DNA of 64,000 nt from Planctomycetota bacterium (lineage in GTDB: Bacteria > Planctomycetota > Phycisphaerae > UBA1845 > Fen-1342), in the NCBI GenBank assembly GCA_018814045.1, contig JAHJAR010000144.1:1-64000 (forward strand), given 5' to 3'. The notes beneath the pieces are model-generated. The model was given only the letters and a program-made list of their open reading frames with translations, was not told the DNA's origin and ran no database searches. This document shows positions 57,132 through 64,000 of the stretch, one piece after another; position 1 is the first letter of the stretch; every line of letters begins with the position of its first letter. Both the position numbers and the translations under genes were made by a program.

Positions 57132-57291
57132 GCCGCGCCGCCGATCTTGAGATGGGGAGAAATCCGTACGCCGCATGGTGCGGCCGCGCTGATTGAACTT
57201 GGGGCGGCGGCGGGGCGATTACGGTATCCTACCGGTCGTGGTGCGGCGGACACGCGGCTGCCGCTCTCTACTCATCCCACAGGAACTCGCC

Positions 57292-60200
57292 ATGCACTCT
57301 TCCGTGCCCATCGGCGCCGTCCTGCTGGCGGCGTGCTGTGTGCTCCCGGCGGCCGGTCAGAACGCCGGCTTGTTCGACGAACTGGCCGTCCTTTACCCGG
57401 ATTCGCAGCCGGGTTCCGGCGCGCAGAGCTACGCCGGCGATACGCCGCGCGGCGTGCCGGTAGGCGTGCATCTGCTGGTGACCGGTCTGCCGGCGGAGGC
57501 AGAAGTTGGCTGGCAGGTCAAGCTGGACGGGGCGACGGCCGACAACGTGCGCGCGTTCCGGTTAGTCGATGTACCGGTGGAGCAGAACACCGGGTCGATC
57601 AGCCGCACGGAGGCCTGGGACAACAAGCAGAATCCACACGTGATCCGTGAAGCGCCGTTCCGCGTCTTCGAAGTGCTCGAACCGGCCGGGGAGATTGTGC
57701 GGGCGAGCGCTGCGGGGGTGCTGGCGCTACGTGTGGAGGTGCCAATCAAACCGGACGCCGAGCCCGCGCCGCGTGTGTACAAAATCACGCTGAAGGCCGG
57801 CGATTGGCAACAGATACTCACCTGGCGCCTGCACGTTCACGCCGCGGCGGTCCCGGCCACGGGACCACAGAGCCCGGGATACACCAATTGGTTCAGCCCG
57901 GACATCATCGCCGAGCGGCACCAGCTCGAGCCCTGGAGGGAGCCCTTCTGGGAGATGCTCGGCCGCTATGCCGACCTGATGGCCCGCGCGCGGCAGAACA
58001 CGTTCTGGGTCCGCTGGCGCGACTTCGCACACGTAGACCAGGAGGGGAAGATCGTGCTGAACCGCGCACGGCTGCAGCGCTATGTGCGGCTCTTCCTCGA
58101 GCGCGGCTTCACACACGTCGAAGGCGGGCACCTGGCGCACCGCCATGCCGGCGACTGGAGCGGTCCCCGACTGGACTTGGTTCTGACCGGCAACGACGTC
58201 AATGCCAGCGCGGGCCGGGTCGAGCTAGCGGCGCTGCTGGGCGCGGTGCGCGCCGCGCTGACGGAGCTCGACCTGCCCAAGCACGTCGTCTATCTCCAGC
58301 ACCTCACGGATGAGCCCACCGATGCCAACGCCAAGAGCTACGCGGCGCTCGCCAACCAGGTCCGGCAGCATCTGCCCGGGGTCAAGATCTTCGAAGCCAC
58401 CATGTCGCTCAGACTGACCGAATCCGTAGACCATTGGTGCCCACAGGTGCAGGAGTATCAGAAGCACCGCGAGTTCTTCGAGCAACGCCAGCAGGCCGGC
58501 GATGCCGTCTGGGTCTACACCTGCCTGGCACCCGGCGGGCCGTGGTTGAACCGGCTGCTTGATCAGGAACGCCTGCGTCCGGTTTACCTGGGCTGGGCGC
58601 TGGTGAAGTATGACCTGGAGGGCTTCCTGCATTGGGGCCTGAACCACTACCGGCCCGGCGTGGACCCGCTGGCCCAGAGTGTAGTTCCACACGGCGAAGG
58701 TCCGCCCAACTTCCTCCCGGCCGGCGATTCTCATCTCATCTACCCCGGCAAGACGGGACCACTGTCGGGACAACGCTGCGAGGCTCAGCGGATCGGGATG
58801 GAGGATGCGGAGTTGCTACGGCTGCTGAAGGCCAGCGACGCGGAACGGGCAGAGGCGCTCATCGCCCGCGTCTTTCGAGCGTTTGACGACTACGAGCAGG
58901 ACATCGCGGCCTATCGCGCAGCGCGACTGGCCTTGCTGAAGGCGCTATCCGGACCCGTTGAAGACAAGTCGGCATCTGAAGGGCCGCCGGTCGAGATCCG
59001 CTACGCATTCGACGACCCCGACGAGGCGGGCGCTTTTGCAGTGACCGCCGGCGGAGACGGAGCGCGGAAGGGAGTCGAACCCAAGATCGCTGACGGCCGG
59101 CTCTGTCTGCTGGAATCCTGGTGGAAGTTCGCCACCTCCGCAGCCTTCGCCGCGCCGACCTCGAAGACTGCGCGCGTCGTGGACGTCTCGTGGAAACTGG
59201 TCATTAACACCGGGACCGAAGGGGCCGGGTTCGCCTGGCTGAATGTGCAGCAACACGGCGAGCGCGGCGCGGCGCCGCAGGTCGAGCAGTGGGAAGCACC
59301 CGGCATCGCGGCGTCGTTCGGCGTCGGGTTCGACGCGTCCAACCCGGTCAACCGCGACCCGTTTCGCGGCTCGGGCAACGTCTACGACCGCCCGCAGCAC
59401 GAGCTTTCTCTGCACTGGGACGGACGCGAGATAGTCAAACGCACGACTCCGATGGACTTTCGGGACGAGCAGCCGCACCAGGTGCGCGTGCGGTTGGAGT
59501 TCGTGCCCGGCGGAGCGGATGTGAGCGTCTGGATCGACGACACCGCGATCTACGAGCGCTATTTCATTTCGGGCCTGACCGCCTACGTTGGCCGCCCGGC
59601 CTTCGGCGGCCGCAACTCGCAGACCGCCGGCGACGTGTTGATCGACGATCTGCAAGTCCGCTGCACCGACCCGATCCCCGCCCCGGAGCCGCCAGTGACG
59701 ATCATGGCGATCGATCACCAGCTCAACGACGTCAAGCACCCCAAGCACGAAGCGGTGGTCGAGTTTCCGGAGCAGGGCGAGCGTTTCGCGCGGATTATCT
59801 GCACCCTGCGGCTGGACAAACCCGAGACACGCTTCGATCCGTGGGATCGGCTGGCCGCGGTCTATGTGTATGACGACGATGGCAAGCACTTCGAGCTGCT
59901 GCGCTACATCACGCCCTACCACCGCGGCCACGAATGGCGTGTGGACGTCACGGACTTCCGGCCGCTGCTGTGCGGCAAACGCAAGATCGAGCAGGTCTGC
60001 CAGACTCAGGGGGAGGGTTGGGTGGTCACGGTGACGTTCGATTTCTATCCCGGTGCGTGTGAACGTGTGGCCTACCGCGTCGTCGAGTTGTGGTCGGGCA
60101 GTCCGGAGATAGGCAACCCGGAGAAACCGGTCGCGGATTTCTATGCGCCACGGACGGTCACCTTGGACGAGCACACGGTCGGCGCCCAGGTGCGCACTGT

Positions 60201-60549
60201 CGTCACCGGCCACGGCATGCATCCGAACACAAACAACGCCGCCGAGTTCATGCCACTGGGACGGACGCTGGTCGTCAATGGTGAGTCGTTTCGCAACGTG
60301 CTCTGGAAGACGGATAACTACCTGAATCCCTGCCGGCCGCAGGGCGGAACCTGGAAATATGATCGGGCCGGCTGGGCTCCGGGTGACGTGGTGCGGCCCT
60401 GGGAGGTCGATATCACGCATCTGCTGAGGGGCGCGCGGGAGTTGCTCGTCGAGTATCGCCTCGATCCCTACCTCAACGAGGGCCGCGGCGAGACCTGGGC
60501 GCCCTTCCACAAAACCGAGGCATACGTCGTGTTCTATCGCGCCCCGTGA
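57292..60549 (+). CDS. Multidomain glycosidase/deglycosylase: DUF4091 (GH123-like) + ConA-like + PNGase F-like
   Basis: ATG 57292 has AGGA eight bases upstream and starts a signal peptide (VLLAACCVLPAAGQ). The 1,085-residue protein has, in order: an N-terminal beta domain and DUF4091/GH123-like barrel with TDEPTDANAKSY (Asp340, Glu341) and WALVKYDLEGFLHWGLNHY; a concanavalin-like beta sandwich (about 560-800); and a C-terminal domain like peptide-N-glycosidase F (PWDRLAAVYV, LLRYITPYHRG, VDVTDFRPLL, TGHGMHPNTNNAAEF, QGGTWKYDRAGW). By recall of PNGase F, Asp60 and Glu206 map to Asp852 and Glu985, while Glu118 maps to Gln904. It likely acts on N-glycans outside the cell. Confidence 0.82.
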   Translation: MHSSVPIGAVLLAACCVLPAAGQNAGLFDELAVLYPDSQPGSGAQSYAGDTPRGVPVGVHLLVTGLPAEAEVGWQVKLDGATADNVRAFRLVDVPVEQNTGSISRTEAWDNKQNPHVIREAPFRVFEVLEPAGEIVRASAAGVLALRVEVPIKPDAEPAPRVYKITLKAGDWQQILTWRLHVHAAAVPATGPQSPGYTNWFSPDIIAERHQLEPWREPFWEMLGRYADLMARARQNTFWVRWRDFAHVDQEGKIVLNRARLQRYVRLFLERGFTHVEGGHLAHRHAGDWSGPRLDLVLTGNDVNASAGRVELAALLGAVRAALTELDLPKHVVYLQHLTDEPTDANAKSYAALANQVRQHLPGVKIFEATMSLRLTESVDHWCPQVQEYQKHREFFEQRQQAGDAVWVYTCLAPGGPWLNRLLDQERLRPVYLGWALVKYDLEGFLHWGLNHYRPGVDPLAQSVVPHGEGPPNFLPAGDSHLIYPGKTGPLSGQRCEAQRIGMEDAELLRLLKASDAERAEALIARVFRAFDDYEQDIAAYRAARLALLKALSGPVEDKSASEGPPVEIRYAFDDPDEAGAFAVTAGGDGARKGVEPKIADGRLCLLESWWKFATSAAFAAPTSKTARVVDVSWKLVINTGTEGAGFAWLNVQQHGERGAAPQVEQWEAPGIAASFGVGFDASNPVNRDPFRGSGNVYDRPQHELSLHWDGREIVKRTTPMDFRDEQPHQVRVRLEFVPGGADVSVWIDDTAIYERYFISGLTAYVGRPAFGGRNSQTAGDVLIDDLQVRCTDPIPAPEPPVTIMAIDHQLNDVKHPKHEAVVEFPEQGERFARIICTLRLDKPETRFDPWDRLAAVYVYDDDGKHFELLRYITPYHRGHEWRVDVTDFRPLLCGKRKIEQVCQTQGEGWVVTVTFDFYPGACERVAYRVVELWSGSPEIGNPEKPVADFYAPRTVTLDEHTVGAQVRTVVTGHGMHPNTNNAAEFMPLGRTLVVNGESFRNVLWKTDNYLNPCRPQGGTWKYDRAGWAPGDVVRPWEVDITHLLRGARELLVEYRLDPYLNEGRGETWAPFHKTEAYVVFYRAP

Positions 60550-62843
60550 GAGTCGTGGGCATGCGTACCACTGACAGAAAAACGGTGAATGATGTGGGTT
60601 GCAAAAGGGCTTGTGCGGATTGCGGTTGGAACGTGCGCTGGCGGATCACGGCTGACACAGCCGTGAGAGCGCGAGGATTAATCCGAGGGCGCACTATCTG
60701 GAAGATCGCGGCACTCGGAGTGTTGGCAACACCGATTGGGGCGGCGAATGGTGATTGGCTGATCGACCCCACGCCGTTCAAGGCCCGTTGTAGCGTCAGC
60801 ACTGCTGACGGGACCATAGTGTTAGGCAACGGCCTGGTGCGGCGGACGTTTCTGCTCAAGCCCAATGCAGCCACGGTCGGCTTCGACAACCTGATGACCG
60901 GCGAGTCGCTGCTGCGGGGCATCAAGCCCGAGGCGCTGGTCGAGATCGATGGCGCTGGTGTCAAGGTGGGCGGGCTCACCGGCCAGCCGAACTACGCGTA
61001 TATCGATCCGCGCTGGCTGGGTCATTTGGTCGCCGACGCGGCCGCGTTTCGGTTCGTGGGACACGAGGTCGGGGTCATACAGGAACGCCTGCCGTGGAAA
61101 CGCGTGCGCCATCACGCCCCGGGCGTTGTGTGGCCGCCGCCCGGCGTGCACTTGCGGATGGACTACGAGTGCGCCGTCAGCGAGCCTCCCGAGTTGCAGG
61201 GCATACACGTGGCGGTGCACTACGAGCTGTACGATCGAATCCCGCTATTCAGCAAGTGGATCACCGTGCACAACGGGCGCCAGCAGCCCGTCACGCTGGA
61301 CAGCTTCACGAGTGAGCTGCTCGCCGTGGTCGAGAGGCCGGCGAATCCGCAACAGAGCGGAATACCGGGCCCGCCGAGCAGTCTGCACGTCGAAACGGAC
61401 TACGCCTTCGTCCAGGGCAACGGCAGTCAGTGCCGACATTGCGTGCACTGGGAGCCCGATCCCGCATTTGGAACGCAGGTGGACTATCAACGCCGCACGC
61501 CCTGCCTGCTGGCGGTGCGGCCGACGGTTGGCCCGGCTCAGCCGCTCGAACCGGGTGCAGCCTTCACATCGTTCCGCACGTTTGAGCTGGTGTTCGACTC
61601 ATCGGAGCGCGAGCGGCGCGGGCTGGCCGTGCGGCGCATGTACCGCACGATCGCCCCGTGGGTAACCGAAAACCCGCTGATGATGCACGTGCGCTACGCC
61701 GACCGCGAGACCGTGACCAGCGCGATCGATCAGTGCACCGCGGTCGGATTCGAGATGGTGATCCTGACCTTCGGTAGCGGCTTCAGCATCGAGAACGACA
61801 GCCCCGAGTACCTGGTCCAGATGCAGAGCTATGCCGACTACGCCCGCAGTAAGGGTGTCGAAATGGGTGGCTACTCGCTGCTGGCCTCACGCCGCGTGGG
61901 CGGCGGACACGATGTGGTCATGCCGGAAGGTCAGCGGCCCACGTTCGGCAATTCGCCCTGCCTGGGCAGCGAATGGGGCAGCGCATACTTTGCCAAGCTA
62001 TACGAGTTTTACCGGCAGAGCGGTTTCTCTTTGCTCGAGCACGACGGTTCCTACCCGGGCGATGTCTGCACCGCCACGCACCATCCCGGCCATCGCGGCC
62101 ACGACGACTCGCGCTGGCAGCAGTGGCGTCAGATCAGCGATTTCTACCGCTGGTGCCGGGCGAATGGCGTCTACCTGAACGTCCCCGACTGGTACTACCT
62201 GGCCGGCAGCAACAAGTGCGGCATGGGCTACCGCGAGACAAACTGGTCGCTGCCGCGCGCCCAGCAGGTGATCCACACGCGGCAGAACATCTATGATGGC
62301 ACCTGGGAGAAGATGCCCAGCATGGGCTGGATGTTCCTGCCGCTGACCGAGTATCAAGGCGGCGGCGCGGCGGCGACAATCGAGCCGCTGCGCGAGCATC
62401 TCGAACACTACGAACGCATGCTGGTCAGCAATCTCGCATTCGGGGTGCAGGCCTGTTACCGCGGGCCGCGGCTTTACGACTGTGATGAGACCAAGGCGGT
62501 CGTCAAGAAGTGGGTAGACTGGTACAAGCAGTACCGCGACATTCTCGAATCAGACGTGATTCACGGCCGCCGCGCCGATGGCCGCGCTCTCGACTGGGCC
62601 CTGCACGTCAACCCGCAGCTTCAGCAACGGGGCCTGCTGGTCGTGTTCAACCCGCTGGACCAACCCGCAGCAGAAACACTAACGGTGAACCTGTACTACG
62701 CGGGCCTGACGGACAGCGCGGCGGTTCGCGCAGGCGGCGGGCCAACGGAGAAGCACCAGCTCGATCGGGCCCATCGCGTGCGCATCGCGGTCGAGGTGCC
62801 GGCGCAGGGCTTCCAGTGGTTCGTAATCGCAGCGCCGCGCTGA
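60546..62843 (+). CDS. Clan-D-like alpha-galactosidase-type glycoside hydrolase
   Basis: The reading frame overlaps the preceding stop in GTGA. Residues from about 55 look like a signal segment (WKIAALGVLATPIGAANG), so the true start may be later (ATG 60561 or GTG 60663). The N-terminal half is a beta domain (IVLGNGLVRRTFLLKPN). The barrel has GFEMVILTFGSGF, FSLLEHDGSYPGD, ANGVYLNVPDWYYLAGSNK and MGYRETNWSLPRA, a set found in planctomycete and verrucomicrobial proteins called alpha-galactosidase-like. The Asp in LLEHDGSY is a candidate nucleophile. It would remove alpha-linked sugars from glycans alongside its neighbours. Confidence 0.78.
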   Translation: MRVVGMRTTDRKTVNDVGCKRACADCGWNVRWRITADTAVRARGLIRGRTIWKIAALGVLATPIGAANGDWLIDPTPFKARCSVSTADGTIVLGNGLVRRTFLLKPNAATVGFDNLMTGESLLRGIKPEALVEIDGAGVKVGGLTGQPNYAYIDPRWLGHLVADAAAFRFVGHEVGVIQERLPWKRVRHHAPGVVWPPPGVHLRMDYECAVSEPPELQGIHVAVHYELYDRIPLFSKWITVHNGRQQPVTLDSFTSELLAVVERPANPQQSGIPGPPSSLHVETDYAFVQGNGSQCRHCVHWEPDPAFGTQVDYQRRTPCLLAVRPTVGPAQPLEPGAAFTSFRTFELVFDSSERERRGLAVRRMYRTIAPWVTENPLMMHVRYADRETVTSAIDQCTAVGFEMVILTFGSGFSIENDSPEYLVQMQSYADYARSKGVEMGGYSLLASRRVGGGHDVVMPEGQRPTFGNSPCLGSEWGSAYFAKLYEFYRQSGFSLLEHDGSYPGDVCTATHHPGHRGHDDSRWQQWRQISDFYRWCRANGVYLNVPDWYYLAGSNKCGMGYRETNWSLPRAQQVIHTRQNIYDGTWEKMPSMGWMFLPLTEYQGGGAAATIEPLREHLEHYERMLVSNLAFGVQACYRGPRLYDCDETKAVVKKWVDWYKQYRDILESDVIHGRRADGRALDWALHVNPQLQQRGLLVVFNPLDQPAAETLTVNLYYAGLTDSAAVRAGGGPTEKHQLDRAHRVRIAVEVPAQGFQWFVIAAPR

Positions 62844-62869: not shown

Positions 62870-64000
62870 ATGTTCAACTGTTGGTCAGTAGCGCTGCTTG
62901 TGGCGGTTCTGGCGAGTGCCGCACCAGACGATGGCAACCAGGACGACCGCCTGGTGCTCTGGTACGACCGGCCCGCGGACGAATGGACCGAGGCGCTGCC
63001 GGTGGGCAACGGGCGGCTGGGCGCGATGGTATTCGGCGGCGTCGACCGCGAGCGGATTCAACTGAATGAGGAGTCGCTCTGGGCCGGGCCGCCAGTCCCA
63101 GAGAACGCCGACGATCTGACCGGGCCGCTGGCGGAGGCGCGGCGACTGTTATTCGCGGGCGATCCGGCGGCGGGCGAGCGCATCGTTGCCGAGCAGATCC
63201 TCGCGCCGCGCATCTCGCCGCGCAGTTACCAGACGCTGGGCGACCTCGCGTTGCGGATGGTCTACCCGGGCCGCGAGTTGGCGGAGCCGCTGCCCGTCAC
63301 CGGCTGGCGGCGTGGCCCCGTGCAACAGGAGACGGACCGCGGGCAGCTTGCGGCCGATTTCGATGACAGCGCGTGGCCGGCTGTCGCAGACGTGAGTGAT
63401 CGGGCGGTACCCGAGAATTCGGTTGTGGTCTTTCGCGCGCGGTTTGCACTAACGACCACACAAATCGCCAGCGGCCTGGCCTGGCTGACACTTAGCCCGA
63501 TTGATGACGCGGCGGAGGTCTATCTCAACGGAGAGCACGTCGGCGAAACACGCGTCTGGAATCGCCCATATCGCTTCGACGTCTCCCACTGGCTGCGCGC
63601 TGGCGAGAACGTGCTCGCGATCGCCGTGCGCAACGTCGGCGGCCCCGGCCATCTGGCACACGAGATTGTGCTGCGGCCGGTGCTGGAGCCGGAATCGTAT
63701 CGGCGAACGCTCGACCTCGATCGGGCGCTGGCTGTCATCGAATACAAGCTCGACGGCGTTAGCTACCGTCGCGAAGTGTCCAGCAGCCCGGTCGATGATG
63801 TGCTGGTGGTACGAATCAGTGCCGACCAGCCGCACCACATCTCGTGCGATATCATCCTCGACCGCCCGAATAGCGACGGGGCCTACAGCGTGGACGAGAC
63901 GCGCTGGGCGATGCACGGGCGCGCCTCGCATGAGGGCCGGCATCTAGGCGTGCACTACGCCGCGCTGCTCGATGCGCGGGCCACGGGCGGAACCGTGCGC
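62870..64000 (+). CDS. GH95 alpha-L-fucosidase, 5' part (runs off window)
   Basis: ATG 62870, with GGAG nine bases upstream, gives 377 codons to the window edge. After a signal peptide (VALLVAVLASAAP) is the GH95 opening: LWYDRPADEWTEALPVGNGRLGAMVFGG and then NEESLWAGPP. From about residue 140 an inserted beta sandwich of GH2 sugar-binding type is seen (WLTLSPIDDAAEVYLNGEHVG, DVSHWLRAGENVLAIAVRN), then the GH95 N-domain resumes (YRRTLDLDRALAVIEY). The catalytic alpha/alpha barrel lies outside the window. GH95 removes fucose from glycans. It follows the deglycosylase and galactosidase genes. Confidence 0.9.
   Translation, partial: MFNCWSVALLVAVLASAAPDDGNQDDRLVLWYDRPADEWTEALPVGNGRLGAMVFGGVDRERIQLNEESLWAGPPVPENADDLTGPLAEARRLLFAGDPAAGERIVAEQILAPRISPRSYQTLGDLALRMVYPGRELAEPLPVTGWRRGPVQQETDRGQLAADFDDSAWPAVADVSDRAVPENSVVVFRARFALTTTQIASGLAWLTLSPIDDAAEVYLNGEHVGETRVWNRPYRFDVSHWLRAGENVLAIAVRNVGGPGHLAHEIVLRPVLEPESYRRTLDLDRALAVIEYKLDGVSYRREVSSSPVDDVLVVRISADQPHHISCDIILDRPNSDGAYSVDETRWAMHGRASHEGRHLGVHYAALLDARATGGTVR

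What the first reader, a model, noticed from the sequence alone, without database searches (positions are those of the whole stretch)
57292..60549. Secreted fusion of a GH123-like barrel, a lectin-like domain and a PNGase F-like domain
One chain carries an exo- or endo-glycosidase-like DUF4091 barrel, a concanavalin-like sandwich and a domain with many PNGase F landmarks (PWDRLAAVYV, VDVTDFRPLL, NAAEF, DRAGW). I know PNGase F enzymes as separate proteins or with small binding domains. Joining the two activities could remove an N-glycan and trim it in one step.
Basis: partly seen in the sequence, partly recalled or inferred. Interest (0 to 1): 0.8.

Follow-up and report, generated by a model that had tools for sequence, protein, structure and literature searches.

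The report
Secreted GH123–lectin–PNGase F fusion enzyme
One planctomycete gene makes a single secreted protein that joins a sugar-trimming enzyme, a plant-lectin-like domain and an enzyme that cuts whole sugar trees off proteins; each part is of a known kind, but the joined form was found in only two related genera and in no paper searched.

Summary
Window 57292-60549 (+) is one unbroken 1085-aa chain: signal peptide, beta-sandwich plus GH123/DUF4091 barrel (PF13320, E=8e-36; best structure NgaDssm 8k2j, E=1e-60), a domain with L-type-lectin fold (Foldseek to pea lectin, VIP36, ERGIC-53, E 3e-9 to 1e-7) and a PNGase F module (PF09113, E=4e-14; 1PNF, E=4e-19). Catalytic residues are intact: D340/E341; W851-D852-R853, H974, E985. 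The fusion is not an assembly error: a second genus of the same family (G458) has it full length at 62% identity. Elsewhere the halves are separate secreted proteins: lectin+PNGase in many Planctomycetota and several Armatimonadota, GH123 alone in sister genomes. So this is a lineage-restricted joining of two secreted enzymes. Best reading: the lectin domain holds a glycoprotein, GH123 removes beta-GalNAc units, the PNGase module releases the N-glycan. Homology, fold and residues are shown; activities, lectin binding, joint action and substrate are inferred. PNGase F residues E118 and W120 are both Gln here, so specificity or rate may differ. No paper in the held library names PNGase F and GH123 together. 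New variant of a known kind.

The parts
57281..57284 (+). Shine-Dalgarno-like AGGA, 7 nt before the ATG
   Evidence: read from the sequence
57292..60549 (+). gene of the fusion protein, 1085 aa
   Evidence: open frame; full-length 62% identical protein in G458
57292..57360 (+). signal peptide, residues 1-23 (MHSSVPIGAVLLAACCVLPAAGQ); cleavage site and a possible lipobox (LAAC15) read by eye, no predictor run
   Evidence: sequence; homologues also begin with a hydrophobic leader ending near GQ
57361..57861 (+). N-terminal beta-sandwich of the GH123 unit, residues 24-190
   Evidence: strands in the model; Foldseek alignment of 553 columns to NgaDssm
57862..58956 (+). GH123/DUF4091 barrel, residues 191-555
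   Evidence: PF13320 E=8e-36 at 200-512; 8k2j E=1e-60 at 192-553
58309..58314 (+). DE catalytic motif, D340-E341
   Evidence: aligned with the DE of NgaDssm and conserved in the GH123 relatives
58957..58980 (+). linker, residues 556-563
   Evidence: low pLDDT at 556-563; sequence differs from the G458 linker
58981..59691 (+). L-type-lectin-fold domain, residues 564-800
   Evidence: model pLDDT 91.4; Foldseek to legume lectins, Emp46/47, VIP36 and ERGIC-53, E 3e-9 to 1e-7; no Pfam family
59692..60546 (+). PNGase F module, residues 801-1085
   Evidence: PF09113 E=4e-14; 1PNF E=4e-19 and Ngly2 9lwg E=5e-12; Foldseek 1pnf E=5e-15
59845..59847 (+). D852, equivalent of PNGase F catalytic D60
   Evidence: alignment; conserved in 44 of 46 bacterial sequences
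60211..60213 (+). H974, position of PNGase F W191 (His in most PNGases, PMC12381499)
   Evidence: all 46 sequences
60244..60246 (+). E985, equivalent of PNGase F catalytic E206
   Evidence: all 46 sequences

Best explanation
A secreted, multi-catalytic glycoprotein-degrading enzyme formed by joining two secreted proteins that occur separately elsewhere in Planctomycetota. The GH123 unit (closest to the Group 3 oligosaccharide/monosaccharide-releasing beta-N-acetylgalactosaminidases) hydrolyses beta-GalNAc linkages by substrate-assisted catalysis with D340/E341. The L-type-lectin-fold domain holds the glycan or glycoprotein. The PNGase F module hydrolyses the GlcNAc-Asn bond with D852/E985. Likely use: feeding on eukaryotic glycoproteins whose N-glycans carry beta-GalNAc. 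Shown here: homology, fold, residue conservation, conservation of the fusion in a second genus. Inferred: both activities, lectin binding, joint action on one substrate, nutritional role.
For: GH123: PF13320 E=8e-36; NgaDssm E=1e-60 and Foldseek E=1e-37, target TM 0.84; DE motif intact; the Group-3 substrate residues W204/H479/L485 of NgaDssm (PMC11087588) align with W200/H467/L475. PNGase: 1PNF E=4e-19 and acid PNGase Ngly2 E=5e-12; Foldseek to PNGase F, Ngly2, 7zgn, PNGF-II and 3ks7; D60 and E206 equivalents conserved in 44/46 and 46/46, the two residues whose loss abolishes activity in Ngly2 (PMC12753239). Lectin: Foldseek to sugar-binding L-type lectins. Fusion conserved in G458. Six PNGase F superfamily members picked from different clades all showed activity when assayed, five of them with narrow specificity (PMC12381499), so the fold with intact Asp/Glu predicts activity well.
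Against: E118 and W120 of PNGase F are Q904 and Q906 here; the aromatic that usually packs on the second GlcNAc is missing at that place. Active-site loops 983-985 and 1006-1031 have low pLDDT and the arrangement of domains is not fixed (pTM 0.55). Lectin residues for sugar or calcium were not verified. No GH92 in the genome, although four GH38 hits exist. Only two fusions were found among the 24 genera searched in the family.
Confidence: 0.62

Rival explanations
1. Only the GH123 half is an active enzyme; the lectin and PNGase modules serve as a binding or targeting arm that recognises N-glycans without cutting them.
For: E118 to Q and W120 to Q in the window, with Q at 120 also in its nearest kin; the lectin fold next to it is a binding fold.
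Against: The catalytic Asp/His/Glu set is kept in nearly all relatives, including standalone ones; a mere binding arm would not be expected to hold these. Position 118 varies in proven PNGases too (Gly in PNGF-II, Asp in Bacteroides; PMC9522356), and in Ngly2 it aligns with Ala.
Confidence: 0.12
2. Both modules are active but on different substrates (for example GH123 on a beta-GalNAc exopolysaccharide, PNGase on glycoproteins); the fusion only couples expression and secretion.
For: Across the phylum the halves occur independently, and no GH123 gene lay within about 8 kb of the standalone lectin+PNGase genes examined. The natural substrate of the Group 3 enzyme NgaDssm is unknown (PMC11087588).
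Against: A lectin-fold domain between the two catalytic units and a downstream GH95-like gene suit one complex glycan; beta-GalNAc is a common cap of invertebrate N-glycans (general knowledge).
Confidence: 0.24
3. The fusion is an assembly or frameshift artefact joining two neighbouring genes.
For: The window genome is a draft in 365 contigs with 7% estimated contamination; standalone relatives have separate signal peptides.
Against: The independent genome G458 has the same unbroken architecture at 62% identity with a different linker; no leader remnant lies at the junction.
Confidence: 0.02

Closest known systems
NgaDssm (PDB 8k2j), Group 3 beta-N-acetylgalactosaminidase of the enlarged GH123 family
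   Same: beta-sandwich plus barrel, DE motif, Group-3 substrate residues W/H/L
   Different: single enzyme; here extended C-terminally by lectin-fold and PNGase modules
PNGase F (1PNF) of Elizabethkingia meningoseptica
   Same: two jelly-roll catalytic module, WDR with D60, E206, DRAGW motif
   Different: E118 and W120 are Gln here; W191 is His as in most other PNGases; PNGase F has no lectin or GH domain
Zebrafish acid PNGase Ngly2 (9lwg)
   Same: PNGase F module at the C-terminus behind accessory domains; GHG...EF motif and catalytic Asp/Glu
   Different: accessory domains are thioredoxin-like and PA, not lectin or GH123
Standalone secreted lectin+PNGase proteins of Planctomycetota and Armatimonadota (e.g. 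L031, L032, L041)
   Same: 59-73% identical over residues 568-1085, same two domains, same catalytic residues
   Different: own signal peptide; no GH123 unit
L-type lectins (pea lectin, VIP36, ERGIC-53)
   Same: fold
   Different: 8-15% identity; no Pfam lectin match; metal and sugar residues unverified

Membership tests
GH123 (PF13320), Group 3 | profile match above curated cut-off | tested here: met
   124.5 bits against 23.1
GH123 (PF13320), Group 3 | catalytic DE motif | tested here: met
   D340-E341; conserved in relatives
GH123 (PF13320), Group 3 | Group 3 substrate residues (W204, H479, L485 of NgaDssm) | tested here: met
   W200, H467, L475 by the alignment and numbering; residue roles from PMC11087588
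GH123 (PF13320), Group 3 | beta-N-acetylgalactosaminidase activity | not testable with these tools
   no assay
PNGase F superfamily | C-terminal domain PF09113 | tested here: met
   53.1 bits against 25
PNGase F superfamily | N-terminal domain PF09112 | tested here: inconclusive
   no Pfam match at E<=1, but phmmer to 1PNF covers this half and the fold matches over about 315 columns
PNGase F superfamily | catalytic Asp60 and Glu206 | tested here: met
   D852, E985
PNGase F superfamily | aromatic-D-basic motif, and His (or Trp) with Glu on the GlcNAc face (PMC12381499) | tested here: met
   W851-D852-R853, H974, E985
PNGase F superfamily | Trp/Tyr on the second GlcNAc (W120 in PNGase F) | tested here: not met
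   Q906 at that position; some proven PNGases supply this residue from another loop (PMC12381499), so it is a specificity feature rather than a family criterion
PNGase F superfamily | PNGase activity | not testable with these tools
   no assay
L-type (legume) lectin | concanavalin-like jelly-roll fold | tested here: met
   Foldseek 2bqp E=3e-9, probability 1.00, TM about 0.55-0.60
L-type (legume) lectin | sequence family match | tested here: not met
   no Pfam lectin match for the window domain; 1 of 30 relatives weakly hits Laminin_G_3; so it is not filed as an L-type lectin, only as sharing the fold
L-type (legume) lectin | calcium and sugar ligands | not tested
   needs a residue-level structural overlay

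The most novel reading that the evidence does not exclude
The protein is a coupled N-glycan processor: the lectin-fold domain captures the glycan, GH123 uncaps beta-GalNAc (for example LacdiNAc antennae) and the PNGase module, with an altered chitobiose site, releases glycans that ordinary PNGase F handles poorly; and the fusion may have arisen twice within one planctomycete family, since in both module trees the window sits with unfused relatives rather than with the other fusion (a single origin is not rejected, p-AU 0.18 and 0.24).
Probability: 0.22. Interest if true: 0.65.

Novelty: new variant of a known kind. Interest (0 to 1): 0.5.

Why it matters
It would be a PNGase naturally linked to a glycoside hydrolase, testable at once with standard glycoprotein assays and possibly useful as a reagent for GalNAc-capped invertebrate N-glycans. 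It also draws attention to a widespread, uncharacterised lectin-fold+PNGase family in Planctomycetota and Armatimonadota, groups whose use of eukaryotic glycoproteins is little studied.

Tried and rejected
Assembly artefact: rejected by the independent full-length fusion in G458. Inactive PNGase fold: not supported, since D60 and E206 equivalents are conserved in 44/46 and 46/46. A hidden further fusion in G346 (match 18-593 with a TGA inside): read through and found to be a standalone GH123. Long frames behind some lectin+PNGase genes (e.g. L011, 1112 aa): upstream open frame without a recognised domain; a start with a leader lies later. Shared gene neighbourhood: none of the four neighbours tested recurs beside the relatives, and neighbours of standalone genes show no obvious glycan cluster (by eye only). 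Viral contigs: no relative. GH92 mannosidases in the fusion genomes: none. Literature: no paper in the held library contains both 'PNGase F' and 'GH123'; most subscription papers are not held. Phylogeny could not decide between one fusion and two.

Full report
The gene. Window 57292-60549 (+) encodes an unbroken 1085-aa protein. An AGGA lies 7 nt before the ATG and the N-terminus reads as a signal peptide (by eye, no predictor run).

Domains by sequence. Pfam finds GH123_cat at 200-512 (E=8e-36) and N-glycanase_C at 953-1053 (E=3.7e-14); NCBIfam finds nothing. Against solved structures the first half best matches 8k2j (E=1e-60 over 192-553), then other beta-N-acetylgalactosaminidases; the C-terminal part matches PNGase F (1PNF, E=4e-19), zebrafish acid PNGase Ngly2 (E=5e-12), the B. 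fragilis PNGase and PNGF-II. PF09112 did not match at E<=1.

Domains by fold. A full-length model built from 24 sequences has mean pLDDT 83 and pTM 0.55, so most of each domain is reliable but their arrangement is not. Foldseek gives NgaDssm 8k2j first (E=1e-37, target TM 0.84), then the other GH123 groups, then PNGase F (E=5e-15, target TM 0.73), Ngly2, the plant/insect PNGase 7zgn, PNGF-II and 3ks7, then pea lectin. The middle domain alone (pLDDT 91) matches legume lectins, Emp46/47, VIP36 and ERGIC-53 at E 3e-9 to 1e-7, while Pfam gives no family and a profile search of PDB sequences nothing. It is therefore called L-type-lectin fold, not a proven lectin.

Catalytic residues. The GH123 DE motif is D340-E341. 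Matching the 8k2j chain numbering to the paper's residues (constant offset of 23) places the Group 3 substrate residues W204, H479 and L485 of NgaDssm (PMC11087588) on W200, H467 and L475. In one alignment line typed by hand into a leading Q was superfluous; the residue pairs given here allow for that. In the PNGase module W851-D852-R853 equals W59-D60-R61, E985 equals E206 and H974 stands at W191, as in most PNGases (PMC12381499). Over 46 bacterial sequences the Asp is kept in 44, the His and Glu in all 46. In Ngly2 alanine mutants of these two acids lose all activity (PMC12753239). Q904 and Q906 replace E118 and W120. E118 blocks core alpha-1,3-fucose in PNGase F and is Gly or Asp in other active PNGases (PMC9522356), so Q904 is not disqualifying; the missing aromatic at 906 is a real difference, shared with four of the nearest relatives.

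Is the fusion real, and how widespread? G458, another genus of the same family, has the same architecture over its full length (62% identity, 1085 aa from its ATG, different linker). In 27 genomes of the family five have any match and only these two are fusions; one of the five, G688, is cut off by its contig end and cannot be judged. In 114 genomes of the order five have PF09113. In samples of 397 genomes of the class and 392 of the phylum no further fusion was seen; only the two best candidate regions per genome were scored there, so a rare further fusion could be missed. The GH123 unit stands alone in G750 and G664 (71% and 64% identical; G626, 67%, ends at a stop near its contig end), and lectin+PNGase stands alone with its own leader in many Planctomycetota and several Armatimonadota. 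The 11 loci fetched from named genomes are all lectin+PNGase without GH123. PF09113 occurs in 39 of 392 sampled genomes of the phylum.

Which organism. The window's genome is a draft; its relatives by the search tool's kinship labels include G757, which carries the same standalone gene as L031 (CP070718, a Phycisphaerales MAG) and is labelled same order, and G019, which matches L032 (Planctomycetota). The window is therefore placed in Planctomycetota, near Phycisphaerales (inference from matching lengths and identities).

Origin. In trees of each module the window groups with unfused relatives (lectin+PNGase with L031, GH123 with L064 and L044) rather than with the G458 fusion, with moderate support at best. 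Forcing the two fusions together is not rejected (p-AU 0.177 and 0.235). One fusion with later splitting, or two fusions, both remain possible.

Surroundings. The next gene overlaps the stop codon (GTG at 60546) if its first start is used; it has no significant Pfam match, only a weak GH36 N-terminal hit (E=0.24), and no PDB sequence match. It is followed by a GH95-like gene (PF14498, E=6e-51) cut by the window end, with an IS110-like transposase reading frame near the contig end (by eye). Upstream lie Fe-S oxidoreductase and colicin-V-like genes. The genome has four GH38 hits and no GH92. This suits a glycan-degrading neighbourhood but does not prove one.

Mechanism. Shown: presence, fold and residues of two catalytic units and a lectin-fold domain in one chain with a leader, conserved in two genera. 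Inferred from the families: GH123 releases beta-GalNAc units; the PNGase module cuts GlcNAc-Asn; the lectin-fold domain binds glycan. Speculative: joint action on one N-glycan capped with beta-GalNAc.

Verdict. The families are known; the combination appears new in the literature that could be searched.

Noticed in passing
window 60546-62843 (+): Large secreted-looking protein directly after the fusion with no significant Pfam, NCBIfam or PDB sequence match; only a weak GH36 N-terminal hit (E=0.24). Possibly an undescribed glycoside hydrolase.
   Followed up: partly
window 62870-64000 (+): GH95-like gene (PF14498, E=6e-51) with a galactose-binding-like segment (PF22666) inside its N-terminal region; cut by the window end.
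   Followed up: no
L031, L032, L033-L041 and many of L005-L030: A common, uncharacterised secreted lectin-fold+PNGase family in Planctomycetota and Armatimonadota; its lectin-fold domain has no Pfam entry.
   Followed up: partly
L071:5769-7148 (contig C343 beyond the window): IS110-like transposase frame close to the contig end, just after the glycosidase genes.
   Followed up: no
L004 and L010: PNGase F-like domains in which the catalytic Asp of WDR is Thr or Pro while the Glu is kept; possible inactive relatives.
   Followed up: no
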